DNA of 64,000 nucleotides from Microbacterium faecale (GTDB lineage Bacteria; Actinomycetota; Actinomycetes; Actinomycetales; Microbacteriaceae): NCBI RefSeq assembly GCF_014640975.1, contig NZ_BMHO01000001.1:62001-126000 (forward strand), written 5' to 3'. A model generated the notes under the pieces. That model did no database searches. It was not told the origin of the DNA and was given only the letters and a program-made list of their open reading frames with translations. Of this stretch, positions 14,435 to 34,925 are shown in pieces (the stretch's first letter is position 1; the number at the start of each line of letters is the position of its first letter). The position numbers were made by a program, and so were the translations under genes.

Positions 14435-15013
14435 ATGACCACCGAGATCCGCTCCGAATTCGGTCAGCGGCAGAGCCTGCGGACCATCACCATGACGACC
14501 AGCATCGTCTCGCTCATCTTCGGTGCGCTGATGCTGATCTGGCCCGTGAAGTCGGCGATGATCGTCGCGATCCTTGTGGCGGTCTACGCCATCATCGGCG
14601 GACTGCTGCATCTCGCGCACGGCGTGCTCTCGCAGGGGACTGGCCGCTGGACACGGGTAGGTTTCGTCGCGCTCGGGCTCGTCTTCATCGCCGCCGGTGT
14701 GCTGGCGTTCGGCAGCCTCGGCACAACGACGCTGCTGCTCGCAGTCATCGTGACGACGTTCATCGGAGCGGCCTGGATCATCGACGGCATCGTCGCCCTG
14801 TTCTCACTCCGGCTGAAGGATCCAGTCCTCCCCCGCGGAGACAAGGCACACAAGGGGTGGACGATCTTCTATGCGGTCGTGGGCGTCGTCGCCGGCGTCG
14901 CGGTCGTCGCCTCGCCGCTCTTCGCCGCGCTGTGGCTGTGGCTTCTGTTCGGAGCGTCGCTCATCGTGCTCGGGATCGGCGGCATCATCCGTGCCGCCTC
15001 GATCGGCGATTGA
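14435..15013 (+). CDS. DUF308 (HdeD-like) membrane protein
   Basis: A 192-residue integral membrane protein with six hydrophobic helices arranged in three pairs (IVSLIFGALMLIWP, IVAILVAVYAIIGGLLHLA, VGFVALGLVFIAAGVLAFG, and so on), the pattern of the DUF308/HdeD family. HdeD helps acid resistance in E. coli; the actinobacterial role is unknown. It lies 18 bases after merR and is probably cotranscribed. Its final codons (AASIGD) and the following bases are duplicated 19.9 kb away after the alpha/beta hydrolase, so this gene end is the left boundary of the first accessory island. Confidence 0.85.
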   Translation: MTTEIRSEFGQRQSLRTITMTTSIVSLIFGALMLIWPVKSAMIVAILVAVYAIIGGLLHLAHGVLSQGTGRWTRVGFVALGLVFIAAGVLAFGSLGTTTLLLAVIVTTFIGAAWIIDGIVALFSLRLKDPVLPRGDKAHKGWTIFYAVVGVVAGVAVVASPLFAALWLWLLFGASLIVLGIGGIIRAASIGD

Positions 15014-15028
15014 CGCTGACGGTTCAGG
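14993..15028 (+). repeat. Left 36-bp direct repeat of the 20-kb island (att-like)
   Basis: The repeat covers the last codons of the DUF308 gene and the left arm of its terminator (GCCGCCTCGATCGGCGA, then TTGACGCTGACGGTTCAGG). It matches 34890-34925 at 34 of 36 bases in the same orientation. The 13-base core CTGACGGYTCAGG also occurs inverted at 15050-15062. Confidence 0.85.
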
Positions 15029-15062
15029 GTCCGCAGGTATCGTGTGGGCCCTGAGCCGTCAG
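15016..15062. terminator. Hairpin terminator between DUF308 and first SDR gene
   Basis: CTGACGGTTCAGG at 15016-15028 pairs with CCTGAGCCGTCAG at 15050-15062 (12 Watson-Crick pairs plus one G-T pair). It lies between two convergent genes. The left arm is part of the 36-bp direct repeat; the inverted arm is identical to the core of the right copy. Confidence 0.75.
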
Positions 15063-15073
15063 TCGCGGTCGCT

Positions 15074-15919
15074 CTACGCCTCGGGGCGCGGACGAGGAAA
15101 GACGCTGATGCCGCCGCCATTCACGTGGATCTCCTGGCCCGTCACGTACCCGTTCTCGTCGGCGGCGAGGTAGGCCACCGCTGCCGCGATGTCTTCGGGG
15201 ACACCGACGCGACCGGACACGATACCGGCGTCGAAACGCGTGCGCGCCGCCGCTTCCTCTTCTGGTGTGGAGACGCCGAATCGGCCACGGCTCGTCCACA
15301 CCAGCCCGGGGCACACGGCGTTGGCCGTGATGCTCCACGCGCCGACATCCATCGCGAGCGCGCGGGTGAAACCGAGGACGCCCGCCTTCGAGGCGGAGTA
15401 CGCCGTCGCCAGCGGCATCGCCTCGACGCCGGCCATCGAAGCGACGTTCACGATCCGCCCATAGCGCTGCGTCCGCATCACGGGCACAGCGGCCAGACAC
15501 ATCAGGTAGGTACCGCGGAGGTTGATCGCGACGATCCGATCGAACGTCGACACCGGCACCTCCTCGATGTCAGCGCGGTCGTCGCCCTGCGGCGCGGCCG
15601 CGTTATTGACCAGGACGTCGAGACGCCCGAACCGCTCGACCGTCTCGGCCACCATGCGGTGCGCGTCCGCCTCATCGGAGATGTCCCCGAGGACAGAATC
15701 CGCCGTGCCTCCACTCGCTCGGACCTGTTCGACGAGCGAGTCGACGCCCGACCAGCCTGCCGCAGGGGCGTCGCCGCGCTGGGCGTCGTTCGCGAGCCCC
15801 TGCGGCGCGACGTCCGACGCCACGACGCGGTATCCCTGCGCGGCGAGGCGACGAACGATCGCCTGCCCCATCCCATCCGGCTTCCCGCACCCGGTCACCA
15901 ACGCGACGCGTTCGGTCAT
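15074..15919 (-). CDS. Short-chain dehydrogenase/reductase (SDR)
   Basis: An NAD(P)-dependent oxidoreductase of 281 residues. Cofactor motif TGCGKPDGMG follows the first strand, NNAA is at about residue 105, and the catalytic YSASK with upstream Ser (NVASMAGVEAMPLATAYSASK) is complete. The PG motif (VCPGLVWT) and the C-terminal YVTGQEIHVNGGG are typical of classical SDRs such as 3-hydroxyacyl-CoA or cyclic-alcohol dehydrogenases. It is last in a five-gene minus-strand operon with a second SDR, an NTF2-like protein, a CoA ligase and an amidohydrolase; the ATG overlaps the previous stop (ATGA). Probably oxidises a hydroxylated pathway intermediate. Confidence 0.88.
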   Translation of the reverse strand: MTERVALVTGCGKPDGMGQAIVRRLAAQGYRVVASDVAPQGLANDAQRGDAPAAGWSGVDSLVEQVRASGGTADSVLGDISDEADAHRMVAETVERFGRLDVLVNNAAAPQGDDRADIEEVPVSTFDRIVAINLRGTYLMCLAAVPVMRTQRYGRIVNVASMAGVEAMPLATAYSASKAGVLGFTRALAMDVGAWSITANAVCPGLVWTSRGRFGVSTPEEEAAARTRFDAGIVSGRVGVPEDIAAAVAYLAADENGYVTGQEIHVNGGGISVFPRPRPEA

Positions 15920-16755
15920 GATGTCTCCTCTTCTTGCCCCGTGTGTCCTGCCGGCGCCGGCGTCGGGCCGCCGCCATCGACGGCGACCACCTGCCCGCTG
16001 ACCCAGCGGGCCCTGTCCCCGGCGAGAAACGCAATCGTCTGGGCGATGTCCCAGACCGTCCCCTCCGTCCGCAGGGCGACCTGCTCTGCTCGCATTCGGC
16101 GCAGCGTGTCATCGAACGCTCGCGATGCGAACGTCGACCAGATCGTTCCCACCCGTACCGCATTGACACGCACACCGCGCGGCGCCAGCGTCGCCGCCGC
16201 TCCGATCGTCAGCTGCTCGAGCGCGGCCTTCGCCACGTTGTAGGGAGTGCCCGGGCCGCGTGATCCCGCCGCGCCCGACGAAGTCGTGACGATGCTGCCG
16301 CCGCGCGTGAGCCGCGGGCCGGCGTGACGAATCAGCTGCCAGGCGGTCGTGAGGTTGACCTCCAGCATCGAGTCCCAGCCGGCACGGTCGACGTCGAGGA
16401 TCCCTTCGAGGTCACCCCGGCCGATCGTCGTGATCACGCTGTCGAGGCCGCCGAAAGCCGCCTCGGCGTCGGTGACCAGCTGCGCACACGTCTCGTCATT
16501 CGCGATGTCGCCGATGACGACGTGCGCCTCGGCGCCCTCCGCGACGATCAGCTCTCGCGCGCGCTCGGCGGCCTCGAGATCGCGGTCGGCGATCACGATG
16601 CGCGCACCGTCGCGGGCCAGCGTGAAGGCGCTGGCGAATCCGATCGCGCCGTGGACTCCGCTCAGCCCGCCACCGGCGACGAGCACCCGGCGGCCCTCCG
16701 AGGGCCGCCCCGGGCGCGCGAGCGGGTCACTGAGTGTGTCGGCGTAAGAGCTCAT
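15916..16755 (-). CDS. Short-chain dehydrogenase/reductase (SDR)
   Basis: The second SDR of the operon, 279 residues. After about 20 extra N-terminal residues comes a cofactor loop (VLVAGGGLSGVHGAIG, a divergent TGxxxGxG), then the acidic VIADRD that favours NAD over NADP, and catalytic Ser plus YNVAK in STTSSGAAGSRGPGTPYNVAK-type context. The C-terminus VSGQVVAVDGGG is canonical. It shares only family-level similarity with its neighbour, so it likely acts on a different intermediate. Four-base ATGA overlaps join it to genes on both sides. Confidence 0.85.
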   Translation of the reverse strand: MSSYADTLSDPLARPGRPSEGRRVLVAGGGLSGVHGAIGFASAFTLARDGARIVIADRDLEAAERARELIVAEGAEAHVVIGDIANDETCAQLVTDAEAAFGGLDSVITTIGRGDLEGILDVDRAGWDSMLEVNLTTAWQLIRHAGPRLTRGGSIVTTSSGAAGSRGPGTPYNVAKAALEQLTIGAAATLAPRGVRVNAVRVGTIWSTFASRAFDDTLRRMRAEQVALRTEGTVWDIAQTIAFLAGDRARWVSGQVVAVDGGGPTPAPAGHTGQEEETS

Positions 16756-17249
16756 CGCGTCACCCCGGCGAACGGGTCACGAGGAGCGATCGGAAGCATC
16801 CGCTGCTCCGCGTAGCGCCATGCGCCCGCAGCGCCGCGACGGAACACGGCGTGTTCGTGGGCAAACGCGAAGATGGCCGGGACGTCGCGCTCGACCGCGC
16901 TGCCGTCGACATTCTGCGTCAGCTCGTACACGGACACGACGTACTGCGCCTCGATCCGGTCGGCGCCCGTCGCGCGGCCAAGAAAGTTGCCCACCACGTG
17001 GAGTGTGCGCCGCCCCTCGTAGGCGTGCAGCATCCGCTCGCCGGCCGCCCGCGCCGCGTCTCGCCCGAGCGGCGCCTCGGCACCGGGAGGGAAGAAGGCG
17101 AGGTCCTCGGTGTGCAAGGTGAATGCGGCGTCGGCGTCGCCGGCATCGAGCAATTCGCAGAACGCGACGGCGACATCCTGACAGGCCGCGATCGCCGCGC
17201 GGTCGTCGCTCTCAAAGCCGATCTCCGCGGGAACAATCCAGGCGGTCAT
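16752..17249 (-). CDS. NTF2-like (SnoaL-type) protein
   Basis: A 165-residue single-domain protein with the cone-shaped NTF2/SnoaL pattern: an N-terminal helix AIAACQDVAVAFCELLDAGDADAAFTLHTEDLAFFPPG, then strands such as RTLHVVGNFLGRATGADRIEAQYVVSVYEL and a C-terminal WRYAEQRMLPIAP. Members act as isomerases, dehydratases or hydrolases, or only bind ligand. The start is the ATG at 17249, overlapping the CoA ligase stop (ATGA). It lies between a CoA ligase and two SDRs, which suggests action on a pathway intermediate. Confidence 0.8.
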   Translation of the reverse strand: MTAWIVPAEIGFESDDRAAIAACQDVAVAFCELLDAGDADAAFTLHTEDLAFFPPGAEAPLGRDAARAAGERMLHAYEGRRTLHVVGNFLGRATGADRIEAQYVVSVYELTQNVDGSAVERDVPAIFAFAHEHAVFRRGAAGAWRYAEQRMLPIAPRDPFAGVTR

Positions 17250-18838
17250 CGCGACCCGCCGATGTAGCCGCCAGCTTCGGCATCCCACGTCGTAGACGAC
17301 AACGCCGTTTCCCGAAGGCGATACTTCTCGACCCGCTGGGTCGGCGTCCGCGGAAAATCGTCGAGCACCTCGAGGTAGCGCGGAATCATATAGCGCGGAA
17401 GGTTGTCGGCGGCCCAGTCGAGGAAGGCCGCTGGATCGAACGCGGCGCCCTCGGCCAGTCGCACGCAGACCTTCACCTCGTCCTCACTCAGGTCGGACGG
17501 CACCGCGAGCGCCACGGCTTCGGCAACGCCCGGGTACTCGCCGATGGCCTGCTCGAGCTCGAACGACGAGATGTTCTCGCCGCGTCGGCGGATCGCGTCC
17601 TTCTTGCGGTCGACGAAGTAGAAGTAGCCCTCCTCGTCGCGGCGACCCAGGTCCCCGGAGTGGTACCAGAGGTCACGGAACGCCTCGACGGTCTTCTCGG
17701 GCATCCCCCAGTAGGCCGTCATCATCGATCCGGCGCGGCGCGGACGGGTGACGAACTCGCCCACCTCGCCTACCTCGACGGGGCCGCCGTCGTCGTCGAC
17801 CAGCTCGACCTCGAAGTGGGGGCTCGCCTTGCCGCAGGATCCATCGGGGAGCCCGTCGGTTCCGGCGTAGGTCACGATGCCCGACTCCGTGGCGCCGTAC
17901 CCCGTGACGAATCCGAGATTCCACCGACGACGCGACTCTCTGATGATCTCGTCGTTCAGGGGGCCGGCGAACGTCATGCGCGGATAGTCGGTCCATTCCA
18001 CGGGCGTTTCGGGCAGGCGCAGAAGAATCCCGATCATCGCGCCGATGACATTCACGTGCGTGGCCCGCACGTCGGCGAGGTTCTGCCAGAACCCGCTCGC
18101 CGAGAACCGCGGCTCGAGGGCGAGCGTGGCCCCCACGGAGAGCACAGCGACCGTTGTCAGGTGCTGGGCGTTGAGGTGAAACAGCGGCAGGCTCGTGGAG
18201 AAGACGTCGTCGGCAGTGAGACCACGCTCCACTGCGGCGTCATGGCCCGCGTACCAGGCGGCACGATGGGACAGCATCACGCCCTTGGACGGCCCTGTGG
18301 TGCCCGACGTGTAACCGATGACACCGGTGTCGGTGACGTCCGCGACGCCGCCAATCGGGGTGTCGGATCCGTTCTTGCGAAGCTCGTCGATATCGATGAC
18401 GGTGCAGCTGGGAACCGTGTGCGAAGCCCCCTCTTCGGCGCCGAGGACGATGATCGTCTCCAGCTGCGGAATGGCTTCCGCGACGGCGGCAACGTGCTCC
18501 ACGAGCGGCGCCTCCACGACGAGGAAGCGCGCGCCGGAGTCGGCGAGCAGATACGAGAGGAAGCGACCGCGCAGGGCGACGTTGACGGGGACCTCGACGG
18601 CTCCCAGTCGCGCGCTCGCGAACCACGCTTCGAGAAACTCGGGGCGGTTGCCGCTCATGATCGCGATGCGATCGCTCGCGACCATCCCGCGCGCAGCCAG
18701 TGCATTGGCGAGCCGCACGGTGCGCTCCGCCATCTCGCGATACGTGGTCGTCTCGCCACCGAACAGCAGGAAGGGATGGTCTCCGCGTTCGCGAGCGTGC
18801 TGATCGAGGAGGCGGTCGACGGTCTGCGGCGCGCTCAT
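17246..18838 (-). CDS. AMP-forming acyl-CoA synthetase
   Basis: This enzyme activates a carboxylic acid with ATP and CoA to the acyl-CoA, via the acyl-adenylate. The 530-residue protein carries the P-loop YTSGTTGPSKG at 176-186, YGATESG at 314-320, and the hinge YFYFVDRKKDAIRRRGENISSFE with the expected downstream C-terminal domain. The overall sequence is closest to the CaiC/cyclohexanecarboxylate-CoA ligase branch. I start it at the ATG 18838, which overlaps the amidohydrolase stop (ATGA). It probably provides the entry step of the island's CoA pathway; the acid is unknown. Confidence 0.9.
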   Translation of the reverse strand: MSAPQTVDRLLDQHARERGDHPFLLFGGETTTYREMAERTVRLANALAARGMVASDRIAIMSGNRPEFLEAWFASARLGAVEVPVNVALRGRFLSYLLADSGARFLVVEAPLVEHVAAVAEAIPQLETIIVLGAEEGASHTVPSCTVIDIDELRKNGSDTPIGGVADVTDTGVIGYTSGTTGPSKGVMLSHRAAWYAGHDAAVERGLTADDVFSTSLPLFHLNAQHLTTVAVLSVGATLALEPRFSASGFWQNLADVRATHVNVIGAMIGILLRLPETPVEWTDYPRMTFAGPLNDEIIRESRRRWNLGFVTGYGATESGIVTYAGTDGLPDGSCGKASPHFEVELVDDDGGPVEVGEVGEFVTRPRRAGSMMTAYWGMPEKTVEAFRDLWYHSGDLGRRDEEGYFYFVDRKKDAIRRRGENISSFELEQAIGEYPGVAEAVALAVPSDLSEDEVKVCVRLAEGAAFDPAAFLDWAADNLPRYMIPRYLEVLDDFPRTPTQRVEKYRLRETALSSTTWDAEAGGYIGGSR

Positions 18839-19659
18839 GTCAGCCCCAGCACATTCGCTGCGGTGCCCTTGAGGATCGCGGGGCGAACGGCGTCGCGGAA
18901 GTCCGCCTGCGCGAAGTCCGCGAGCCATCTCTCGGGGTGGATGACGGGATAGTCGGAACCGAACATGACCTTGTCTTTCAGGAGGGTGTTGGACTGCTGG
19001 ATGAGTTGGGGGGAGAAATATCGCGGAGACCATCCCGACAGATCGATGTAGGCGTTCGGCCGCGTCGTCGCGATGGATAGCGCGACGTCCTGCCAGGGGT
19101 AGGACGGGTGCGCCATGATGATCTTCAGCCCCGGGAAGTCGACAGCGACGTCATCGAGGAAGATCGGGTCACAGTACTTCAACCGCGCCCCTGCTCCCCC
19201 GCCGACCTGCCCCGTGTGGAACAGCGCCGGCACGCCGAGACTCTCGAGCGCTTCGTACAGGGGGTAGACGACGGGATCGTTGGTGAAGAACCCCTGCGTG
19301 GCCGGGTGGAACTTGAACCCGCGGATCCCGTGATCGTTGACAAGCCGTCGTGCCATGGCAGCCGCGTCGGTACGCCGAGTCGGATCGATGCTCCCAAACG
19401 GAATGAGCACGTCGTCCGCCAACGCCGCCTGCTCCGCGACTTCTTCGTTGCTGACGCGGTGGCCGAGCGATTCCGGGGCATCGACGGCGAAGACGACGGC
19501 CGCCATCTTCAGCCCGCGATACAGCTCCGCGAGCTCCGGGACCGTGGGCAGCTGGACGCCGAACACGGGGTGCACGCGGTCGGCCGCAGGTGTCGAGACC
19601 GACGCCTCCACGTGGACGTGGACGTCGATCGCGTCGATCCGCGTCAGGTCGATCGTCAT
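18835..19659 (-). CDS. Amidohydrolase_2 family metal-dependent hydrolase/decarboxylase
   Basis: A 274-residue TIM-barrel enzyme of the amidohydrolase-2 family, which includes ACMSD-type decarboxylases and lactonases. Metal-ligand motif DVHVH is at residues 12-16, GFKFHPATQGF supplies another His, IIMAHPSYPW a further His, and FGSDYPVIHPE the catalytic Asp. It is the first gene of a five-gene operon and is divergent from the PaaX regulator. It could decarboxylate or ring-open an aromatic acid before or after CoA activation; that is inference. Confidence 0.87.
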   Translation of the reverse strand: MTIDLTRIDAIDVHVHVEASVSTPAADRVHPVFGVQLPTVPELAELYRGLKMAAVVFAVDAPESLGHRVSNEEVAEQAALADDVLIPFGSIDPTRRTDAAAMARRLVNDHGIRGFKFHPATQGFFTNDPVVYPLYEALESLGVPALFHTGQVGGGAGARLKYCDPIFLDDVAVDFPGLKIIMAHPSYPWQDVALSIATTRPNAYIDLSGWSPRYFSPQLIQQSNTLLKDKVMFGSDYPVIHPERWLADFAQADFRDAVRPAILKGTAANVLGLT

Positions 19660-19824: not shown

Positions 19825-20655
19825 ATGCCCTCTCAGCCCGTGACGACGAGCGCCGGACGCAAGACCAAGACGCTCTTGCTGACCGTGCTCGGCTCCGCCG
19901 TCGCCCCGCGGAACGTCACGCTCTGGCAGGAGACGTACGTGCGCGCGCTGGCTGACCTCGGCGCCAGCGAAGCGGCCGCCCGCCAGACCATTTCGCGTGC
20001 CGTCTCCGCCGGGTGGCTCGCTAGCAGCCGCGAAGGTCGACGCAGCCGGCTCTCGGTTCCGGCCGAGCACCGCCAGGGGCTCGACGAGGGCGCCCGGCGG
20101 GTTGAGCGGTTCGGGACGCAGCCCCCCTGGTCGGGAGAATGGCTCGTGCTCATCCTGACTGTCCCGGAACAGGCTCGCGCTCTGCGTCACCGCTTTCGCA
20201 CGCAACTCGGGTGGCTGGGATTCGGGTCGCTCGGCAACGGTGTGTGGATCTCACCCCACGTCGACAGCGAGGACGAGATCAGGGCGCTGCTGGCATCGGC
20301 GGAGGGAATCGGCGACTCGCACCTGTTTCGTTCGGCCACGTACGCTGACGCGCGGCCGCAGCGCCTTGCGAACGCCGCGTGGGACATCGGCTCCCTCCGC
20401 GACCGCTACGACGCGTTCGTCACACGATTCACCGACTCGCAGCCGCGCAGCGGCCCCGAAGTGTGGTCGGAATGGGTCGAGCTGGTGACGTCATGGCGAC
20501 ACTTTCCGCTGTTCGACCCCGAACTGCCCGACCACCTCCTGCCGCCGAACTGGCCGCGCGACCGCGCGCGGGAACTGTTCGAGAGCCGCAACACCCTGTG
20601 GCTCCCGGGCGCCTTCGCCCACCTCGAAGACATCGAACGGAGTATCGTGCCATGA
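19825..20655 (+). CDS. PaaX-family transcriptional repressor
   Basis: A 276-residue regulator. The N-terminal winged helix (KTLLLTVLGSAVAPRN, SEAAARQTISRAVSAGWLASSREGRRSRLSV) is followed by the PaaX central domain (WSGEWLVLILTVPEQARALRHRFRTQLGWLGFGSLGNGVWISPH) and the C-terminal domain ending with WRHFPLFDPELPDHLLPPNWP. PaaX repressors are released by aryl-CoA thioesters such as phenylacetyl-CoA. This one lies between a CoA-ligase operon and a thioesterase gene, so its inducer is probably the acyl-CoA made by the island's ligase. Confidence 0.92.
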   Translation: MPSQPVTTSAGRKTKTLLLTVLGSAVAPRNVTLWQETYVRALADLGASEAAARQTISRAVSAGWLASSREGRRSRLSVPAEHRQGLDEGARRVERFGTQPPWSGEWLVLILTVPEQARALRHRFRTQLGWLGFGSLGNGVWISPHVDSEDEIRALLASAEGIGDSHLFRSATYADARPQRLANAAWDIGSLRDRYDAFVTRFTDSQPRSGPEVWSEWVELVTSWRHFPLFDPELPDHLLPPNWPRDRARELFESRNTLWLPGAFAHLEDIERSIVP

Positions 20656-21074
20656 CCGACGACGTCCAGCGCACCGTCGCCGCCCTGAATGACCAGGACG
20701 CGACCTTCCACGCACAGGGGATGACCGTGGAATCCGTGGCGGACGGGCGGGTCTCGATCTCGCTCACCGTCCGCGCGGACATGACCAACGGCGCCGGCGT
20801 CGCTCACGGAGCATGGGTGTTCATGGTGGCCGACACCGCGTTCGGGTACGCAGCGGCCACGCGTCTGCCGAACGCGCTCACGGCCGACGCGGATATCCGG
20901 TTTCACCGACCGGCGCCCGCCGGCACACGGCTCGTCGCCGAAGCAGAGGTGGTCACGCAGACGCGGTCCACGCTGCTGATCGACGTCGTCGTCTCGAATG
21001 ACGCCGGCCACCGGGTAGCGAGCTTCCGAGGCGGTGCGCGCGCCGGCCGGCCGCGTCAGACGGATCCCTCCTGA
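20652..21074 (+). CDS. PaaI-like hotdog acyl-CoA thioesterase
   Basis: A 140-residue hotdog-fold protein. The helix-strand signature NGAGVAHGAWVFMVADTAFGYAAAT matches the PaaI family, with the catalytic Asp in ADTAF. PaaI hydrolyses stalled aryl-CoA esters to free CoA during phenylacetate breakdown. Its ATG overlaps the PaaX stop (ATGA), so regulator and thioesterase are translated together. The pairing supports aromatic or cyclic acyl-CoA intermediates in this island. Confidence 0.88.
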   Translation: MTDDVQRTVAALNDQDATFHAQGMTVESVADGRVSISLTVRADMTNGAGVAHGAWVFMVADTAFGYAAATRLPNALTADADIRFHRPAPAGTRLVAEAEVVTQTRSTLLIDVVVSNDAGHRVASFRGGARAGRPRQTDPS

Positions 21075-23623: not shown

Positions 23624-23685
23624 TGAAACTCCAGCTGTAAAGGGGAGGTGCGCCGCGGGTGACGGCGAATCCAACTTTGTTGAAT

Positions 23686-25150: not shown

Positions 25151-25151
25151 C

Positions 25152-25640
25152 TCAGTGCACCAGGAAGTACGAGATCTCGTTGCCGCGATCGTCGCGGCGG
25201 CCATAGCCGACGAAGGTGTACTGGCACAGCCAGTCGTGCGGACCCTCCGGCACCTCGAACGTCGGCGACGTGCGGATGTAGTACTCATTCGGCGAAACGT
25301 CCTCGCCCCGATTGACCCGTTCGCGCACCTCGGGAGGCATCCGGAAGATGCCGCGATTGTGGATCCGGATCAGGGTGCCGTCGTCGACTTCGAGGAAGTA
25401 GCGCGCGTCGAGCTGGGCGATCCCGTGACGCAACACCAGTGGCGAATCGCCCCCGGCGGGAAGTGCGCGTCCGCGTAGTCGGGGGCCTTCGAAGCTTCCC
25501 GACATCACGCCCACTTGGCCGTGCTGTACACCGCTTCCCATCGTCGGAGTCGTGTGCGCTCCGTCCAGCTCGAGGCGGATGGTCAGAACGTGCTCCAGCC
25601 GCGGTTGAGGTACTCCGTCGTGCCACACCAGCTCGGTCAT
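25152..25640 (-). CDS. DUF3237 family protein (copy 1)
   Basis: A 162-residue beta-barrel-type protein. Family blocks visible are HVLTIRLELDGAH, GRALPAGGDSPLVLRHGIAQLDARYFLEVDDGTLIRIHNRGIFR and PHDWLCQYTFVGYGRRD. DUF3237 proteins have a lipocalin-like barrel and are often found in aromatic or terpenoid catabolic operons, but their activity is unestablished. It sits 35 bases after the thiolase gene and one base before the NTF2-like gene. A paralogue is at 33346-33876. Confidence 0.88.
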   Translation of the reverse strand: MTELVWHDGVPQPRLEHVLTIRLELDGAHTTPTMGSGVQHGQVGVMSGSFEGPRLRGRALPAGGDSPLVLRHGIAQLDARYFLEVDDGTLIRIHNRGIFRMPPEVRERVNRGEDVSPNEYYIRTSPTFEVPEGPHDWLCQYTFVGYGRRDDRGNEISYFLVH

Positions 25641-25675
25641 AGCGTCTCGCTTTCTTGAGGTCGATTCGAAAGTGG

Positions 25676-26851: not shown

Positions 26852-28935
26852 CGTGTGGCCTCCCAACGACCCAGCGGTTCGTCTCTGTGTGCGTGCTCGA
26901 CAATGAGCGGATGCGGCGTCCAGCGGTGACCGCCGGGACGCCGGGCGTAACGCTCCATGATTCGCACGACGTTCGTCAACCCGAGGATGTCGCCGAAGTG
27001 CATGGGGCCGCCGCGATCCGCGGGAAAGCCGTATCCGTTCGCGAACACCACGTCGATGTCACCCGCGCGGTCGGCGACGCCATCCGCGAGCACGGCAGCA
27101 CCCTCGTTGACCATCGACAGGATGGCGCGTTCGGCGATCTCCTGATCGGTGTGCTCGCGCGGGAGGACTCCGGCGTCGACCGCGATCGTGCGGATGAGCT
27201 CTTCGACCTCCGGGTCGCGCACGGGCTGCCCCGATTCGTGCCGATACCAGCCGCGACCGCTCTTCACACCCAGCCAGCCGCGTTCGACCAGCGCGGCAGC
27301 GGGACGCCAGGCGAGTTCTCCCGCGGTCCCACTCGCCTCACGCGCATGCATCGGGACGTCGTTACCGACGAGGTCGAGAACGCGCAGCGGCCCCATCCGC
27401 ATTCCCCACTGCTCCAGCGCGGCGTCGATCTGCGCGGGTGCGGCGCCTTCGAGGAGCATGAGTGCCACCTCGCGGCTCGACGTCTCGAGGATGCGATTGC
27501 CGATGAACCCGGGACCGACGCCCGAGACGACGGGCACCTTACCGATCGTCTCGGCGTGTGCGAGCGCGAACGCGATCGCCTCCGGCGCCGTCTGCGCGCC
27601 GCGGACGATCTCCAGCAGGCGCATGATGTGCGCCGGCGAGAAGAAGTGAAGCCCCACGACATCCTGCGGACGCGACGTGCTCGCCGCCAACGCGTCGACG
27701 TCGAGGGACGACGTGTTCGTCGCCAGAATCGTTCCCGGCGACAGCCGAGCGTCGAGTCGCCGGAACACGTCGAGCTTGAGCTCCATGACCTCGGGAACTG
27801 CTTCGATGACGAGGCCGACGTCGGGGAGCTGCTCGATCTCGGCAACGCAGGTGATGCGCGCGATGATCTCCTCCGCCGAGCCGACGCCCGCCTGACGCCC
27901 GCGTGTGCTCCGCGCCGCATCGACCGCGATCGCCCGCTCGGTCTCCGCACGCCGCGCGGCATCCGGTTCGACGACCCAGACCTCGAACTCCGCGAGACTG
28001 TGCGCGAGGGCGATACCGCGCCCCATCGTGCCGCCGCCGATCACGGCGATGCGCGCGGGGTCGAGCAGGCGCACTTCGGTCCGAGGACGTCGCCGGGCGG
28101 CGCGCTCGGCGAGGAAGAGGTGACGTCGGGCCGACGCGCTCTCGGACTCGGCCAGGCGCCGGAACAGCCGCTGTTCTTCGACGAACCCGCGGTCGACGTC
28201 ATCGAGTCCCGCGCGCACCGCACCGATCACGGCGCTGCGGGGATCGTCCCCCTGCACGGCGGCAGCAGCGAAAGCGAGAAAGCTCTCGGCATGGTCATCG
28301 CGCAGCGTCACGTCGCGCAAGCGCGGGACGGGCGCGTCGACGACGGTGGACGCGAACGCCACCGCACCGGCGACGGGATCTGCGGCGTCGACGATGGCCG
28401 CGACGAGGCGACCTCCCGCGACCGCTTCCGCGCGCAACGACGTACCCTGCAGCATGAGGTCCACGCCGCGCTCGAGGCCGACCGCTCGCGGCAGCCGCTG
28501 CGTGCCGCCAGCACCCGGGAGGAACCCGAAACTCACCTCGGGGAGACCGAGACGCGCGTGCGCCGTGGCGACCCGGTAGTGGCAGGCGAGCGCCAACTCG
28601 AGGCCCCCACCCAGCGCCAGTTCATCGATCAGCGCGACGACCGGAGTCGACATCTCGTCGAGGAACTCGGCGATCGTCGAGTGCAGCGAGGGCTCGGCCA
28701 GTCCCTGCCCGGAGTCAAACTCGCTGAGGTCCGCCCCTGCCGAGAAGACCCCCTCCGCCCCGGCCAGTACGACGGCGCGAACGTCCGCGTCGCTCTCCGC
28801 ACGGTCGAGGGCGTCAATGAGTTCCGAACGCAGCGGGCGAACGAGAGTGTTGAGTCGGCCGTGGCGCATCAACACCGTGACGACACCGTCGGGGGAGCGT
28901 CGCTCTTCGACGAGCGGCACGCGAGATTGGGGCAT
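26848..28935 (-). CDS. Bifunctional enoyl-CoA hydratase / 3-hydroxyacyl-CoA dehydrogenase (FadB-like)
   Basis: A 695-residue two-function beta-oxidation enzyme. The crotonase domain (residues 1-190) keeps oxyanion-hole [12 protein letters not shown] and both catalytic glutamates, in [15 protein letters not shown] and [17 protein letters not shown] linker leads to the NAD-binding domain with [30 protein letters not shown] at about 310, catalytic His in [16 protein letters not shown], and two C-terminal helical domains. The start is the ATG at 28935. It follows marR on the same strand with a 62-base gap that holds a dyad. It would hydrate and oxidise the pathway's enoyl-CoA. Confidence 0.92.
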
Positions 28936-28953
28936 GCGCCTATCGTTGCCGAA

Positions 28954-28993
28954 TCTCAGAAAAAGGTCAAACGTCTTATTACTTTTCCTGAGA
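28954..28993. promoter_or_regulatory. Inverted repeat between marR and fadB-like gene
   Basis: TCTCAGAAAAA (28954-28964) and TTTTCCTGAGA (28983-28993) are complementary at 10 of 11 positions. The AT-rich spacer holds TTGACC on the minus strand, a possible -35 for the fadB-like gene. A MarR operator is the likeliest role; a weak marR terminator is the alternative. Confidence 0.45.
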
Positions 28994-28997
28994 AGTT

Positions 28998-29603
28998 TTA
29001 CTTCTTTTCGGTGGATCCGCCCTTTTGGCGCGAACGGCGAACGCGCTGCCGGATCGGCTCGCGACGCTCCTCCGGCGACAGCGCGGGCGGGCTCGATTCG
29101 TGCAGCACGCGTCGGAGCAACCGAGCGATCTCGGCGCGCTCCTTCGGCGTGTAGCGTTCCGCCCATTGCGCCACACGCGTGTTATTGCGCGTGAACAGCT
29201 CCGCGACGGCACGCTCGCCTTCCGGCGTCAACGCCAACAGCACGGCGCGGCCGTCCGACTCATCGGCCGTGCGCGTGATCATCCCGTAGTTGTCGAGAGT
29301 CTTGATCACGCTCGAGATGCTCGCCGCCGATGTGTTCGACAGGTGGGCGAGCTTCATCGGGGAGATTCTCCCCACCGAGCGGATGGTGAACAGTACGCGG
29401 AACGCGGCCCAGGTCATCCCCGCCGGTCGGTGCACCTGCTGCTCAAGATCCTGCTGCAGGCGGTTCCCTGCGCGCACGATCGTGAGGCCGAAGTCCATCG
29501 CCGCGAGGTCCGCATCGCCGTCGATGCCGAGCGCAGCCGCACGGGTGAGTTCGTCGTAGTGAGCCGCGTCGCTCGAGCGGGAGTCCGCAGATTCAACGGT
29601 CAT
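28998..29603 (-). CDS. MarR-family transcriptional regulator
   Basis: A 201-residue winged-helix regulator. The DNA-binding core is MTWAAFRVLFTIRSVGRISPMKLAHLSNTSAASISSVIKTLDNYGMITRTADESDGRAVLLALTPEG in outline, with the wing motif DGRAVLL typical of MarR. The C-terminal tail is highly basic (RRVRRSRQKGG). It lies between the importer ATPase gene and the fadB-like gene on the same strand. MarR proteins in catabolic clusters usually sense the aromatic acid or its CoA ester, so it may be a second sensor beside the PaaX-like repressor. Confidence 0.9.
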   Translation of the reverse strand: MTVESADSRSSDAAHYDELTRAAALGIDGDADLAAMDFGLTIVRAGNRLQQDLEQQVHRPAGMTWAAFRVLFTIRSVGRISPMKLAHLSNTSAASISSVIKTLDNYGMITRTADESDGRAVLLALTPEGERAVAELFTRNNTRVAQWAERYTPKERAEIARLLRRVLHESSPPALSPEERREPIRQRVRRSRQKGGSTEKK

Positions 29604-29650: not shown

Positions 29651-30493
29651 TCATACAGACTGAGCATTCGCCTCAGCCGCGCGCAGTCTCGCTTCGCGCC
29701 GTTCACGCTGCAGTTTCGGGTTGGGAACCGGTGCCGTCTCGATGAGCTGACGCGTGTACGGGTGCTGAGGACGCTCGCAGATGTCGTCGACCGATCCGTG
29801 TTCGACCAGTTCTCCCTGCCGCAGCACGAGCACGCGGTCGGCGAAGTGACGCACCACGGCGAGGTCGTGCGTGATGAACAGGTACGCCACGTCGTGTTGG
29901 GATCGGAGATCACGGAGGATCTGGAGCACGGATGCCTGCGTCGACACGTCGAGCGCGCTGGTCGGCTCGTCGCAGATGACGAGCTTCGGCTCCAGCATGA
30001 GGGCGCGGGCGATCGCGATGCGCTGGCGCTGGCCGCCCGAGAAGTTCGCGGGGTACCGGTCAGGCGAGTCGTCGGGGAGACCTACCTGTCGCAGGAGGCC
30101 TTCCATGCGCTGCCGCGCCTCCGATGACGTCACGGCTCCCTGCGCACGCAGGGGCTCGGCGAGGTTCTCGCCGATCGTCTTGGCCGGGTTCAGCGAGCTG
30201 AACGGATCTTGGAAGACAACCTGCAGATCCCGCGCGATCTCACGTTGCGTCCGGGCCGACCGCCGGGTGATGTCCCGACCGTCGAAGACGACACTTCCCG
30301 ACTGGATCGCGTTGAGCCCGAGGATGCTGCGACCGATCGTCGACTTCCCCGACCCCGATTCCCCCACGAGCGCAACCGTCTCGCCGGGAGACACGGAGAA
30401 CGAGACGCCGTCTACTGCCCGCATCTTCTTTCGACGAGAGCCGGCGACACGAAACTCGACGCACAGGTCACGGACCGTGAGCAGTTCAGACAT
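29651..30493 (-). CDS. Oligopeptide-type ABC importer ATPase (DppF/OppF-like)
   Basis: A cytoplasmic ATPase of 280 residues. Walker A GESGSGKST, signature FSGGQRQRIAIARALML, Walker B LVICDEPTSALD and H-loop FITHDLAVVRHFADRV are all intact. The C-terminal YTRQLIETAPVPNPKLQRERR region is the OppF extension that in relatives binds an iron-sulfur cluster or stabilises the dimer. The start overlaps the stop of the permease-ATPase fusion gene by eight bases. It would pair with that fusion's ATPase half. Confidence 0.92.
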   Translation of the reverse strand: MSELLTVRDLCVEFRVAGSRRKKMRAVDGVSFSVSPGETVALVGESGSGKSTIGRSILGLNAIQSGSVVFDGRDITRRSARTQREIARDLQVVFQDPFSSLNPAKTIGENLAEPLRAQGAVTSSEARQRMEGLLRQVGLPDDSPDRYPANFSGGQRQRIAIARALMLEPKLVICDEPTSALDVSTQASVLQILRDLRSQHDVAYLFITHDLAVVRHFADRVLVLRQGELVEHGSVDDICERPQHPYTRQLIETAPVPNPKLQRERREARLRAAEANAQSV

Positions 30494-32249
30494 GGGGTCC
30501 TCCGACGTCGACGAGGCTCGGGGTGGCGCCGATGAGCGCGCGCGTGTACTCGTGCTGCGGATCGGCGAACAGGCCTTCGACCGTGGCCTTCTCCACGATG
30601 TGCCCCTTCTCCATCACGACGGCGCGTGAGGCGATATCGGCGACGACGCCGAGGTCGTGCGTGACGAACATGATCGCCATCCCCGTTTTCTTCTGCAGCG
30701 ACCGGAGCAGATCGAGGATTCCCGCCTGCACCGTCACATCGAGCGCCGTCGTGGGCTCGTCTGCGATGAGAAGTTCCGGTTCGCCCGTCAAAGCGATCGC
30801 GATCGCGACGCGCTGCGCCATCCCGCCGGAGAGCTGATGGGGGTAGCTGTGCATCACCGCATCGATGTCGCGCAGGCCGACCTCTTCGAGCAGCGAACGC
30901 GCGATGCGCCGCCCTTCAGCGCGCCCCACCTTCCGGTGTCGCCGCACGGGAGCCACCAGCTGCGACGCGACCGTGAAGCACGGGTCGAGAGCCATCATGG
31001 GCTCCTGCGAGATCATCCCGATCCGCTTGCCCCGATAGGTCGCCATCTTCGACGGCGAGAGGGAGGAGATGCCGACGCCGTCGAACTCGATCGCTCCCTC
31101 GCAGACGTGCCCGGGCACCGGCAGAAGTCCGATGATCGCCAGCGCGGTCATCGTCTTGCCGGATCCCGATTCCCCGACGACCGCGACGATCTCGCCGCGG
31201 TCGATTCCGAAGGAAATGCCGTCGACGACCTTCTCCCCCGAGTCGTCCGGAGAGAAGGTGATGCTGAGGTCGCGCACCTCCAGGAGGCGCTCCGACTGCG
31301 CGGCGTCCGTCCGCGCGGGCAGGGTCGGCGCGGTGTTCGCGGCCCGCGTCAGGAGACTGAAGCGCTGCCGCTTGCCGTCTCCGTCGCGCAGTGCGTCGCC
31401 GATGAGGTTCGCCGCAAGAATCGTCAGGGCGAGGACGACACCGGTCGGCACGAGAAGCCACGGGTGCTGATAGATGTACGTCGAAGCTTCGGCGATCATG
31501 CCACCCCACGTCGGGGCGGGCGGGGGCGGACCGAGCCCGAGAAAGCCGAGGCTGGCCTGCACGAGGAGCGCGGCGCCGAAGGTGAGGCTGCTCATGACGA
31601 TGATCGGCCCGACAACGTTCGGCAGCACGTGACCAAACACGACTCTCGGAGTGGAGAGCCCGGCCACCTTCGCCGCATCGACATAGAGCTCGCTACGAAC
31701 CGCCAATGTCGAGGCCTGCGCCATGCGCAGGTACGAGGCCGAGACCAGAACACCGAAGGCGGCCATCGATGCGACGATGCTCGTGCCGAACACTGCGGCG
31801 AGCGCGAGCAGGACGACCATGGCCGGGAGCGCGAAGACGAGCTCGGCGATGCGGTTGGCGACGCCGTTGAGCCATCCGCCGTAGTAGCCGGCGACGACGC
31901 CGACCGTGACGCCCAGCACGATCGCGACCACAACCGCTTCCAGCGACCCGAGGAGCGCGCCCTGGCCGCCCCAGAGGATCCGCGAGAACACGTCACGCCC
32001 GAGCGCGTCTGTGCCGAGAAGGTACTCCGCGGAAGGCCCCTGGAGCGCCGCCGAGAGGTTCTGCTTGAGCGGGTCCTTCAACGGGAGGAACGGGGCGGAG
32101 AAGCTCGCGACCGCGAGGATGATGAGCCAGACGACCCCGGCTGCGGCCAACGGGGCGCGGCGCACGTGACGGAGGAAGGCGAGCTTCCTGGTGCGACCCG
32201 CGCCGACCGCCGTGATCGACGTCGTGGGGAGGATCGGTGCCTGTGTCAT
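30486..32249 (-). CDS. ABC importer permease-ATPase fusion (DppC + DppD type)
   Basis: A 587-residue fusion of two usually separate subunits. Residues 1-300 form a DppC-type permease: GTDALGRDVFSRILWGGQGALLGS, then about five helices with the EAA-type loop VDAAKVAGLSTPRVVFGHVLPNVVGPI. Residues 325-587 form a DppD-type ATPase: GESGSGKTMTALAI, LSGGMAQRVAIAIALTGEPELLIADEPTTALD and FVTHDLGVVADI. There is no stop or frameshift between them. Start ATG 32249 overlaps the upstream permease stop (TGATG). Such fusions occur in actinobacteria but are a minority. Confidence 0.92.
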   Translation of the reverse strand: MTQAPILPTTSITAVGAGRTRKLAFLRHVRRAPLAAAGVVWLIILAVASFSAPFLPLKDPLKQNLSAALQGPSAEYLLGTDALGRDVFSRILWGGQGALLGSLEAVVVAIVLGVTVGVVAGYYGGWLNGVANRIAELVFALPAMVVLLALAAVFGTSIVASMAAFGVLVSASYLRMAQASTLAVRSELYVDAAKVAGLSTPRVVFGHVLPNVVGPIIVMSSLTFGAALLVQASLGFLGLGPPPPAPTWGGMIAEASTYIYQHPWLLVPTGVVLALTILAANLIGDALRDGDGKRQRFSLLTRAANTAPTLPARTDAAQSERLLEVRDLSITFSPDDSGEKVVDGISFGIDRGEIVAVVGESGSGKTMTALAIIGLLPVPGHVCEGAIEFDGVGISSLSPSKMATYRGKRIGMISQEPMMALDPCFTVASQLVAPVRRHRKVGRAEGRRIARSLLEEVGLRDIDAVMHSYPHQLSGGMAQRVAIAIALTGEPELLIADEPTTALDVTVQAGILDLLRSLQKKTGMAIMFVTHDLGVVADIASRAVVMEKGHIVEKATVEGLFADPQHEYTRALIGATPSLVDVGGPHV

Positions 32250-33187
32250 CAGCTTCTCACCTTCGGGTTGATCCACGCGTTGAGCAGGTCGACGATCAGG
32301 TTCACGACAATCACGAGCAGTGCCGTGAGGATGACCACGCCCTGCACGACCGGGATATCTCGGCCGTTCATCGCGACGAGCATGATCGCTCCGAGACCGG
32401 GGAGCGCGAACACCTGGTCGACGACGATGGCGCCGCTGAGCAGTCCGATGAACTGGAAGCTCAGACTCGTGACGACGGGAATCGCCGCGTTGCGCAGAGC
32501 GTGTCGGAAGACCACGCTCGAGTAGGGGGCGCCGGATGCCATCAGCGTACGGATGAAGTCACGCCCGAGCACCTCGTTCATCGATGCGCGCGTCTGACGC
32601 GCGACGCCCGCGATACCGGCGAGTGCGATCGCGGCGACCGGGAGGACGAGGTGCTTCGCCCAGACGTCGACGCCGCTGCTGAGAGGGGCGTATCCCGTCG
32701 CGGGGAGCGCGCCGAGACCGACGGCGAACAGCAGCACGAGGACGATACCGAACCAGAAGTTCGGCACCGACGTCCCCAGGATCGCGACGACCTGGGACGT
32801 CTTGCCGACCCAGCCGCCCTTGAGCGCGCCGACGAGGCCGATAAGTACACCGAGCACGGCCGTGACGATGATCGCGATCACCGCGAGTGACACCGTCACT
32901 TCCATCCGCTCGGCGATCATCGCGACAACGGGCCGGTTCGTGCGAATGGACGTGCCCAGGTCACCCTGCAGGGCCGACACCAGCCAGTCGGCGTACTGGA
33001 CGATCAGCGGCCGGTTGAGCCCGAGCGCTTCGCGCACGGCGGCGTACTCCGCGGGAGTCGCCTCCGGGCCCAGGATCGCGATCGCAGGGTCGCCCGGGAT
33101 GGCGTTGATCAGGAGGAACGTCAGCGAGGCGATCACAAAGATCATGGGAACCGAGACCGCGAGTCTCCGCAGGATCACTGTCAACAC
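32249..33187 (-). CDS. Peptide-type ABC importer permease (DppB-like)
   Basis: A 312-residue membrane subunit with six helices. The N-terminal LRRLAVSVPMIFVIASLTFLLINAIPGDPA is the classic DppB start with the PGDPA motif, and the EAA loop reads RDFIRTLMASGAPYSSVVFRHALRNAAIPVVTSL. The start is GTG. It opens the importer gene set and is followed by the fusion subunit. Together with the lipoprotein at 22100-23623 they make a complete importer. Confidence 0.92.
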   Translation of the reverse strand: MLTVILRRLAVSVPMIFVIASLTFLLINAIPGDPAIAILGPEATPAEYAAVREALGLNRPLIVQYADWLVSALQGDLGTSIRTNRPVVAMIAERMEVTVSLAVIAIIVTAVLGVLIGLVGALKGGWVGKTSQVVAILGTSVPNFWFGIVLVLLFAVGLGALPATGYAPLSSGVDVWAKHLVLPVAAIALAGIAGVARQTRASMNEVLGRDFIRTLMASGAPYSSVVFRHALRNAAIPVVTSLSFQFIGLLSGAIVVDQVFALPGLGAIMLVAMNGRDIPVVQGVVILTALLVIVVNLIVDLLNAWINPKVRS

Positions 33188-33345
33188 GGTTGCCCCTCCC
33201 CGCGCGGCGTGCAGCCACGCGTTCGACGGCGCTGGCGCGCGCGGCCATTGGCGTTTTCGATCATCTGGGTACCTCGTCGTATCGCACGATCAAACTGCTC
33301 GGGTGGTTCTTTGCGATGCGCAGGTCGTCGGCCCGCGGCTCGCTG

Positions 33346-33876
33346 CTACTGCACGGCGTAGTAGTGAATGAGGTTGCCGCTCTCGCGACGCTCGCCGATG
33401 CCGACGAACACCCGCTTGGCGAGCCAGTCGTGCGGGCCTTCCTCGACATCGAACAGCGGCGTCACGCGGAAGTAGACGTCCTTCGGCTCGTGGAAGGTGC
33501 GTGCGACGCCGGGGACGAACGTCGATCCGTCCACCGACAGCTCCGGGTCGACACGCAGACCGCGGTTATGCAGCCGGATGTTCGTCCCGTCGTCGGCCTG
33601 GAGGATGTAGCTGGCATCGAATACGGCGACGCCGTTCGCACGAATCGTCGGCCAGTCTCCGCCGCCGGGAATCGCCCGGCCCTGGATGTTGGGCCCGCGG
33701 AACCAGCCGCCCTTCACCGCGATGAACCCGTATGCAGATCCATTCGCCATCTGTGCGGTGCGCACCGCACCGAATGCGTGGTCCAACTCCAACGCAACCG
33801 ACAGGGCGTATTCCAGCCCCGGCGCCGCGGGGGGCACGAACTCTTCTTCAATCGACACCGTCGTCAACCGCCTCAC
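33346..33876 (-). CDS. DUF3237 family protein (copy 2)
   Basis: A 176-residue paralogue of the protein at 25152-25640. Shared family blocks are ALSVALELDHAFGAVRTAQ, GRAIPGGGDWPTIRANGVAVFDASYILQADDGTNIRLHNRGLR and PHDWLAKRVFVGIGERRESGNLIHYYAV. It begins at the ATG 33876, with a GTG six codons on as alternative, and lies downstream of a good promoter. The importer permease gene starts 159 bases further. Function of DUF3237 is not established; carrying two copies in one island suggests two related ligands or a hetero-oligomer. Confidence 0.87.
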   Translation of the reverse strand: MRRLTTVSIEEEFVPPAAPGLEYALSVALELDHAFGAVRTAQMANGSAYGFIAVKGGWFRGPNIQGRAIPGGGDWPTIRANGVAVFDASYILQADDGTNIRLHNRGLRVDPELSVDGSTFVPGVARTFHEPKDVYFRVTPLFDVEEGPHDWLAKRVFVGIGERRESGNLIHYYAVQ

Positions 33877-33879
33877 AAA

Positions 33880-33927
33880 ATAGATTGATGTCTAACTAAT
33901 TTGACCCAGTCCTCCCCCGAATGTCAA
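33880..33927 (-). promoter_or_regulatory. Promoter and TTAGACAT element upstream of DUF3237 copy 2
   Basis: On the minus strand TTGACA (33927-33922) and TCAAAT (33904-33899) are 17 bases apart. Directly downstream lies TTAGTTAGACATCAATCTA, which shares TTAGACAT with the element just after the -10 of the binding-protein promoter at 23686-23695. The shared site in the same position suggests a common repressor. This promoter probably drives the roughly 10-kb operon down to 23763. Confidence 0.6.
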
Positions 33928-34004
33928 GCGAACACGCAAAAGCATGCGACGATTCACTTAAACGTTGTATTACCACCCGATTCCTCGGCGAAGGAGCCGT
34001 CCCC

Positions 34005-34910
34005 ATGAGCGAAGCGACCCCCTACACACGCGCATCACTGCCCGTCGAGGGCGGCTCTCTCGAGTACGGCCAATGGGGATCAGCCACCGCGCCGCCGATC
34101 ATCGCGCTCCACGGAGTCACCAGCACCCATATGGACTGGATGACGTTCGGTGAGATCGCGAACGACCGCCTCCGTGTGATTGCGCCGGATCTCCGTGGGC
34201 GCGGCCGCAGCTCGGACATCGACGGTCCGTGGGGCATGCCAGCGCACGCGCGCGACGTCGTCGCGCTCATGGACGCCATGGGGATCGAACGCGGCGTGCT
34301 CGTCGGACACTCGATGGGCGGGTTCGTCGCCGTGCAGACGGCGGTGCTATTCCCGGACCGGGTCTCGGCGATCCTGCTCGTCGACGGCGGTCTGCCGGCA
34401 GTCGAGGCCAATGAGGGCGGCGACGCTCTCACCCGGATCGTGCTCGACGCCGCCCAGGCCCGTCTGGACCAGCGGTTCGACAGCCCCGCGACGTACCTCC
34501 GTCAGCTCGCGGCCCAGTTGCCGGAGGGGCAGACCCTCACCCCCGAGGCCGAGCAGATCGCCCGATACGACCTCGTGAGCACCCCTGAGGGCGAGCTGCG
34601 CGTGGCCGGGTCGTTCGACGCGATCGCCGAAGACTCCGTTCACATCACGGGCGATGCCTCCGATCGCACGTTGCGCGAGCTCACGACACCGACGGTCCTC
34701 GTTCGCGCGGGCCGCGGGCTCCCGCCCCGCGAAGGGGGGCTCTACTCGCCGGCCGAGGTCGCCGCGTGGACCGACCGCGTAGAAGCGCTGGACAGCGTCG
34801 AGCTGCTGGAGGCCGACCATGGCTCGATCATCCGGGATCCTCGCTACGTGGAAACCCTGGTCGCGCACGCCGAGCGCATGATCGCGAACGCCGCCTCGAT
34901 CGGCGACTGA
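34005..34910 (+). CDS. Alpha/beta hydrolase
   Basis: A 301-residue serine hydrolase. The oxyanion motif HGVTSTHMDW, PDLRGRGRS, nucleophile Ser103 in GHSMGG, and a late His in LEADHGSII complete the expected triad pattern. The overall plan resembles meta-cleavage-product hydrolases and esterases of aromatic pathways. ATG 34005 has GAAGGAG upstream. Its last codons (AASIGD) and stop lie inside the right 36-bp direct repeat, so its C-terminus has the same sequence as the DUF308 protein's. It is the only plus-strand gene at this end of the island. Confidence 0.88.
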   Translation: MSEATPYTRASLPVEGGSLEYGQWGSATAPPIIALHGVTSTHMDWMTFGEIANDRLRVIAPDLRGRGRSSDIDGPWGMPAHARDVVALMDAMGIERGVLVGHSMGGFVAVQTAVLFPDRVSAILLVDGGLPAVEANEGGDALTRIVLDAAQARLDQRFDSPATYLRQLAAQLPEGQTLTPEAEQIARYDLVSTPEGELRVAGSFDAIAEDSVHITGDASDRTLRELTTPTVLVRAGRGLPPREGGLYSPAEVAAWTDRVEALDSVELLEADHGSIIRDPRYVETLVAHAERMIANAASIGD

Positions 34911-34925
34911 CGCTGACGGCTCAGG
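34890..34925 (+). repeat. Right 36-bp direct repeat of the 20-kb island (att-like)
   Basis: This copy matches 14993-15028 at 34 of 36 positions; the two differences are both T-to-C. It covers the last codons of the alpha/beta hydrolase and the purF stop codon (34921-34923). A short hairpin, ACGGCTCAG pairing with CTGAGTCGT, continues into purF and is a degenerate version of the left terminator. Confidence 0.85.

What the first reader, a model, noticed from the sequence alone, without database searches (positions are those of the whole stretch)
14993..34925. A 20-kb catabolic island flanked by a 36-bp direct repeat that copies a gene's 3' end
14993-15028 and 34890-34925 agree at 34 of 36 bases in the same orientation, 19,897 bases apart. 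The repeat spans the last codons (AASIGD) and terminator arm of the DUF308 gene, and the alpha/beta hydrolase at the other end now finishes with the same codons. This looks like att-site duplication by a site-specific event targeting a convergent-gene terminator beside purF. No integrase gene is recognised inside, so the recombinase would be lost or act in trans.
Basis: partly seen in the sequence, partly recalled or inferred. Interest (0 to 1): 0.78.

Follow-up and report, generated by a model that had tools for sequence, protein, structure and literature searches.

The report
Catabolic gene cluster inserted beside purF
A 20-kb set of catabolic genes sits between two genes that are close neighbours in most related Microbacterium species, with a 36-base copy of one neighbour's end on each side and a borrowed tail on the last inserted gene; the insertion looks real, but nothing that could move it was found inside, so it reads as ordinary gene gain with an unusually clear scar.

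Summary
The repeat is real: 34 of 36 bases, 19,897 bp apart; about 2e-8 such pairs are expected by chance in 24 kb. The empty-site prediction is met. Of 13 relatives with the DUF308 orthologue, 10 have purF 9-1,020 bp downstream (5 within 76 bp; 5 at 440-1,020 bp), 2 hold other inserts (7.1 and 15.3 kb), and in 1 purF was not in the fetched piece. All 13 orthologues end in a tail like AASIGD, so the repeat is DUF308's own end, spacer and purF stop.

The island is a catabolic cluster. G145 carries counterparts of all 20 ORFs tested, in the same order, elsewhere and without long flanking repeats. Its hydrolase ends IANA*; here the tail ASIGD follows IANA. A 90% identical hydrolase also ends SIGD, so the insertion may predate a lineage split.

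The att-site reading is not established: no recombinase domain was found in the island, there is almost no spare DNA, the site is not conserved, and two other inserts lack repeats. I favour a one-off recombinase-independent insertion that duplicated its target (about 0.5) over an integrase (about 0.3).

The parts
13646..14416 (+). MerR/TipAS regulator, left neighbour
   Evidence: Pfam TipAS 1.7e-28; matched next to DUF308 in L071, L072, L073, L075, L076, L078 and L082
14435..15013 (+). DUF308 membrane protein gene whose 3' end is duplicated
   Evidence: Pfam DUF308 7.8e-14; 14 of 366 genus genomes, own included, match at E<=1e-42
14993..15028 (+). left copy of the 36-bp repeat: DUF308 last six codons, stop, spacer and TCAGG
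15005..15073 (.). hairpin (about 30-bp stem with bulges) between DUF308 and SDR1; first arm is in the repeat, second arm is an inverted partial copy of it
   Evidence: -54.9 kcal/mol, z -9.1
15074..15919 (-). SDR1, left end gene of the cluster
   Evidence: Pfam; 78% identical in G145
15916..16755 (-). SDR2
   Evidence: 64%
16752..17288 (-). SnoaL-like protein
   Evidence: 61%
17246..19033 (-). AMP-dependent acyl-CoA ligase (true start uncertain)
   Evidence: 73%
18835..19659 (-). amidohydrolase 2 family
   Evidence: 71%
19825..20655 (+). PaaX-like regulator
   Evidence: Pfam; TIGR02277 137 bits, below its cut-off of 264.55; 56% in G145
20379..21074 (+). hotdog thioesterase; ORF start probably too early
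   Evidence: Pfam 4HBT; TIGR00369 above cut-off, TIGR02286 (PaaI) below it; 40% in G145
21101..21973 (-). protein without a Pfam match, present in the G145 cluster
   Evidence: 65%
22100..23674 (-). extracellular solute-binding protein family 5
   Evidence: 66%
23763..25076 (-). SnoaL-like protein (ORF start uncertain)
   Evidence: 44%
24668..25288 (-). SnoaL-like protein, weak Pfam match
   Evidence: 3.1e-05; 45%
25152..26528 (-). DUF3237 protein (ORF start uncertain)
   Evidence: 55%
25676..26866 (-). thiolase
   Evidence: 67%
26848..29166 (-). enoyl-CoA hydratase / 3-hydroxyacyl-CoA dehydrogenase fusion (ORF start uncertain)
   Evidence: Pfam; FadJ/FadB models below cut-off; 58% in G145
28998..29603 (-). 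MarR regulator
   Evidence: 72%
29651..30493 (-). ABC transporter ATPase
   Evidence: 77%
30486..32276 (-). ABC permease and ATPase in one ORF
   Evidence: 74%
32249..33187 (-). ABC permease
   Evidence: 79%
33346..33876 (-). second DUF3237 protein
   Evidence: 71%
33921..34910 (+). alpha/beta hydrolase, right end gene of the cluster, with DUF308-derived tail ASIGD in place of its own stop (start may be nearer 34005, where P0001 begins)
   Evidence: 48-51% in G145
34890..34925 (+). right copy of the repeat: DUF308 tail, 10-bp spacer, purF stop
34921..36432 (-). purF, right neighbour (ORF start uncertain)
36404..37525 (-). purM-like gene, right neighbour

Best explanation
A self-contained catabolic gene cluster (acyl-CoA ligase, beta-oxidation-like enzymes, PaaX-like and MarR regulators, family-5 ABC importer, hydrolase), probably acquired horizontally, was inserted once into the short convergent junction between DUF308 and purF. 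The event copied about 36 bp of the junction, so one copy completes DUF308 on the left and the other keeps a native-looking junction next to purF on the right. The hydrolase lost its stop codon and reads into the DUF308 tail. Shown: DUF308 next to purF in relatives, the same cluster elsewhere without long repeats, DUF308 origin of the repeat. Inferred: that the event was a one-off, recombinase-independent insertion (staggered-break repair or replicative template switching, with about 3 bp, GCC, shared at the hydrolase junction), and that the island is now immobile.
For: purF lies 9-1,020 bp after DUF308 in 10 of 13 relatives. All 13 DUF308 orthologues end in a tail alignable to AASIGD (12; G191, one codon shorter, AASLE*), so the copying went from DUF308 to the hydrolase. 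In G145 the 20 of 20 island ORFs used as queries have counterparts at C11:4.7-31.5 kb in the same order with the same end genes; its hydrolase ends GCGAACGCC-TGA; the roughly 220 bp compared on each side share no more than 9 exact bases. The two other inserts at this junction have no flanking repeat above shuffles, so the junction takes up genes without an integrase signature. A 90% identical hydrolase with a SIGD end (P0001) and a 92% identical DUF308 ending AASIGD (P0135) suggest an old, stably inherited insertion.
Against: A clean 36-bp target duplication is longer than most transposon duplications and is what integrase att sites often look like (recalled). No Ku gene was found in the genome (the control rang in 1 of 14 genomes), so Ku-dependent end joining is unlikely and the repair route is unspecified. 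The genome does encode tyrosine and large serine recombinases elsewhere. In the genus set no other genome had DUF308 more than 64% identical, so the exact ancestral junction was not seen; half of the 10 'empty' sites hold 440-1,020 bp of other DNA.
Confidence: 0.5

Rival explanations
1. Site-specific integration: a tyrosine recombinase (lost or acting in trans) inserted an element at an attB in the DUF308 3' end, giving attL and attR of 36 bp and restoring DUF308.
For: Direct repeat at both ends, 34/36, within a gene 3' end that stays intact; DUF308 next to purF in relatives; six PF00589 matches and one PF07508 match elsewhere in the genome.
Against: No recombinase domain in the island ORFs scanned and only 45 and 0 bp between repeats and cluster genes; the core is not conserved among the 13 relatives; two other inserts at the junction lack repeats; no core match in viral contigs, no phage match to DUF308 with its flank; of 137 plasmid records with a match none holds 80% of the island in one place; shared tail in a relative suggests long residence.
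Confidence: 0.3
2. One replicative template-switching event made all three copies seen: left direct copy, inverted partial copy forming the hairpin next to the SDR1 stop, and right direct copy.
For: The second hairpin arm is an inverted partial copy; its reverse complement scores 30 against the right copy and 25 against the left, above the best of 300 shuffles (24 and 20), and has C at the variable site inside its 13-bp core, like the right copy. The arm runs up to the SDR1 stop. Template switching can create hairpins in one step (PMC8794818, abstract and passages seen).
Against: Hairpins between DUF308 and purF are also predicted in two relatives without the island (G057 z -4.4, G343 z -5.8), so the hairpin may simply be a terminator kept by selection; the inverted core is only about 13-16 bp; the right junction has no notable hairpin (z -1.1).
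Confidence: 0.15
3. The island arrived by ordinary double homologous recombination in the flanking core genes from a related donor that already carried it; the repeat was formed in that donor.
For: Hotspots without mobile elements and with recombining flanking core genes are common (PMC5635113, passages seen); the insertion may be shared with another lineage.
Against: Explains spread, not the origin of the repeat; flanking-gene phylogeny was not tested.
Confidence: 0.05

Closest known systems
Gene-gain hotspots between conserved core genes without recognisable mobile elements (PMC5635113, abstract and passages seen)
   Same: Different cargo in different lineages between the same two genes; no recombinase domain in the island ORFs scanned or in the ten G038 ORFs scanned.
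   Different: Those were defined within species with several genomes; here there is one genome per species. Of the three large inserts only the window's has a direct repeat.
Integrative elements and cis-mobilisable islands that use a gene 3' end as attB (recalled; only a search listing was seen)
   Same: Direct repeat reproduces a gene 3' end, target gene stays intact.
   Different: No recombinase domain found, almost no spare DNA next to the repeats, target sequence not conserved, no other element with the same core found.
   Same: Same order of the 20 ORFs compared, SDR1 to hydrolase.
   Different: Other chromosomal place (flanked by what I read by eye as a LysR-like and a purU-like gene), an extra ABC operon inside, no long flanking repeat, hydrolase without the tail.

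Membership tests
Site-specific integrative element / genomic island | Direct repeats at both ends derived from one target site | tested here: met
Site-specific integrative element / genomic island | Uninterrupted target in relatives | tested here: met
   purF 9-1,020 bp after DUF308 in 10 of 13 relatives, 5 of them within 76 bp
Site-specific integrative element / genomic island | Integrase or other recombinase gene inside | tested here: not met
   no such domain in 32 distinct island ORFs scanned with Pfam
Site-specific integrative element / genomic island | Same core used by other elements | tested here: not met
   two other inserts at the junction have no repeat; core absent from viral contigs and in only two places of the own genome
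Site-specific integrative element / genomic island | Excision or a circular form | not testable with these tools
   needs reads, PCR or further strains
MGE-free gene-gain hotspot | Different cargo between the same core genes in different lineages | tested here: met
   20 kb here, 15.3 kb in G038, 7.1 kb in G168; G168's cargo includes ABC-importer genes of the same families as the island's, 24-51% identical
MGE-free gene-gain hotspot | Raised homologous recombination in flanking core genes | not tested
   would need several genomes per species
Transposon | Transposase and terminal inverted repeats | tested here: not met
   no transposase domain; the inverted match between the island's ends is the 26-bp, 81% pair I4, which is the hairpin arm

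The most novel reading that the evidence does not exclude
A catabolic cluster entered the chromosome in one recombinase-free event that wrote three copies of a 36-bp gene end (direct, inverted, direct), built a new terminator for the old gene and gave the last cargo gene a stop codon: capture of a 20-kb operon by template switching rather than by a mobile element.
Probability: 0.15. Interest if true: 0.55.

Novelty: new member of a known kind. Interest (0 to 1): 0.33.

Why it matters
Many gene-gain hotspots have no visible mobile element (PMC5635113, passages seen), and how the genes first enter is usually unreadable. Here the scar is still readable: both borders are known to within a few bases, relatives show DUF308 next to purF, and the same cluster is seen elsewhere without the scar. 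Closely related strains could therefore decide between an integrase and recombinase-free capture. It is also a small example of a gene acquiring a new C-terminal tail from the gene at its insertion site.

Tried and rejected
Chance match: rejected. Hydrolase naturally ending AASIGD: rejected, as 0 of 29 relatives' loci end in SIGD (17 plus-strand loci, 12 minus-strand loci), nor do P0002-P0010, P0011 or G130 (one of the 29, read a second time). G009, whose match ran to the last residue of the query, has a look-alike GATGSVGD near its end but goes on for ten more residues. DUF308 as the newcomer: rejected, because it lies next to purF in 10 of 13 relatives. Island as a plasmid segment: 137 plasmid records match, none with 80% of the query in one place, and the 20 rows shown cover about 1% each. 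Core in viral contigs: none. DUF308 with its flank in phages: none. tRNA target: no tRNA or tmRNA in the window. Ku-type end joining: no Ku match. Composition: island GC 0.678 against 0.688 and 0.672 in the flanks, not informative. SDR1: genus 7 of 361 at E<=1e-60, of which besides the own genome only G145 (78%) exceeds 58%; family sample 1 of 398 (E<=1e-100) and order sample 1 of 396 (E<=1e-95), in both only the own genome. The LysR-like and purU-like names for the G145 flanks were read by eye from sequence. In one search the 12 minus-strand loci were first read on the wrong strand; those 12 readings do not count and were redone. The DNA behind P0001 and P0135 was not fetched, so their adjacency is inferred.
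Full report
Observation. The two 36-base copies are at the stated places, in the same orientation, 34/36 identical and 19,897 bp apart. From base composition 1.9e-8 such pairs are expected in 24 kb. A search of the own genome with 77 bases of the left end gave these two places only. No tRNA or tmRNA lies in the window.

Where the repeat comes from. Of 366 genomes of the genus, 14 including the own hold a DUF308 protein at E<=1e-42. I fetched all 13 others. In 10 of 13, purF follows DUF308 in convergent orientation: 5 with 9-76 bp between stop codons (G032, G212, G179, G343, G057) and 5 with 440-1,020 bp (G043, G103, G151, G157, G233), where other sequence, by eye a small gene, lies between. 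In 2 of 13 the gap is 7,124 bp (G168) or 15,256 bp (G038). In 1 of 13 (G191) purF is not in the 8 kb fetched. All 13 DUF308 orthologues end in a tail that aligns with AASIGD, such as AATLEK, AASLDN or GASIDT (12; G191 ends AASLE*), so the repeat is DUF308's own 3' end. In 8 of the 12 relatives where purF was seen, its end reads TCAGGA on the DUF308 strand, as here; G057, G168, G179 and G343 differ. The right copy (DUF308 tail, 10-bp spacer, purF stop) has the form of a native junction, most like G032 and G212 with 9-bp spacers.

What the island is. Pfam names two short-chain dehydrogenases, SnoaL-like proteins, an acyl-CoA ligase, an amidohydrolase, a PaaX-like and a MarR regulator, a hotdog thioesterase, a thiolase, an enoyl-CoA hydratase/3-hydroxyacyl-CoA dehydrogenase fusion, two DUF3237 proteins, a family-5 solute-binding protein with permease and ATPase genes, and an alpha/beta hydrolase. 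NCBIfam equivalog models match several of the ten proteins given but below their cut-offs, so no substrate can be named. Several ORF starts are uncertain. No recombinase or transposase domain was found in 32 distinct island ORFs scanned, chance ORFs included. In G145 all 20 island ORFs used as queries have counterparts in the same order over about 27 kb, with SDR1 and the hydrolase again as the end genes and an extra ABC operon inside. SDR1 is rare: besides the own genome only G145 (78%) exceeds 58% identity in 361 genus genomes; samples of 398 family and 396 order genomes gave only the own genome. Protein databases hold further 77-88% homologues, mostly without an organism name (120 of 145 listed).

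The borrowed tail. In G145 the hydrolase ends ATIANA followed by TGA; here it reads RMIANA followed by ASIGD and the DUF308 stop. None of 29 relatives' hydrolase loci ends in SIGD, nor do P0002-P0010 or P0011. G009 has a look-alike SVGD ten residues before its end. P0001, 90% identical, ends VTSIGD, and a 92% identical DUF308, P0135, ends AASIGD. The two may come from one lineage sharing the insertion; this is inferred from four shared residues, since no DNA context was available.

The left junction. 15005-15073 folds into one long hairpin (-54.9 kcal/mol, z -9.1). Its first arm is in the repeat; its second arm is an inverted partial copy ending at the SDR1 stop. Read in reverse complement, the second arm scores 30 against the right copy and 25 against the left, each above the best of 300 shuffles. 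Within its 13-bp core it carries C at the variable site, like the right copy, which suggests that C is ancestral and the left copy changed. The right junction has no notable hairpin (z -1.1). Of three relatives folded, G057 (z -4.4) and G343 (z -5.8) have strong hairpins between DUF308 and purF, G179 (z 0.9) does not, so a terminator here is not itself evidence for a special event.

Mechanism. Two readings remain. An integrase would explain the direct repeat and the intact target gene. Against it: no recombinase domain found, 45 and 0 bp of spare DNA next to the repeats, no conservation of the core, no repeat around the two other inserts or the G145 cluster in the stretches compared, no core in viral contigs. 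A one-off insertion that duplicated its target explains the lack of machinery and the close fit of the borders to the cluster ends, but its molecular route is unspecified; Ku was not found. The genome has six PF00589 matches and one PF07508 match, all more than 1.2 Mb away along the contig, one of them near the contig's other end, so recombination in trans cannot be excluded. I put about 0.5 on the one-off insertion and 0.3 on an integrase; the template-switching rival (0.15) is one specific form of the one-off insertion, so the odds overlap.

Known context. Gene-gain hotspots without mobile elements are common: half of the hotspots in that study lacked evidence of mobile elements and 27% lacked the integrases and transposases searched for (PMC5635113, abstract and passages seen). 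That template switching can create hairpins in one event is described in PMC8794818 (abstract and passages seen). Literature searches made were made; none was aimed at this locus, so no claim is made that it is absent from print.

Noticed in passing
No flanking repeat.
   Followed up: partly
No flanking repeat.
   Followed up: partly
L072:2672-3123; L073:4412-4868; L087; L071 near purF: By eye, a small minus-strand ORF lies between DUF308 and purF in several relatives; not annotated here.
   Followed up: no
L084:9271-15946: The G145 cluster contains a second ABC importer operon between the permease and DUF3237 genes that the window's cluster lacks.
   Followed up: no
L086:1444-2295: Array of 12 degenerate 50-nt copies at 72-74-bp spacing, many with an ATCGCNCATATGCA-like core.
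   Followed up: no
15010-15021 and 34907-34918: A 6-bp tandem at the DUF308 stop codon in both direct copies (TTGACGCTGACG left, CTGACGCTGACG right).
   Followed up: partly
25228-25293 and 33422-33487: 66-nt direct repeat, 76% identical, within the two DUF3237 genes, which look like paralogues.
   Followed up: no
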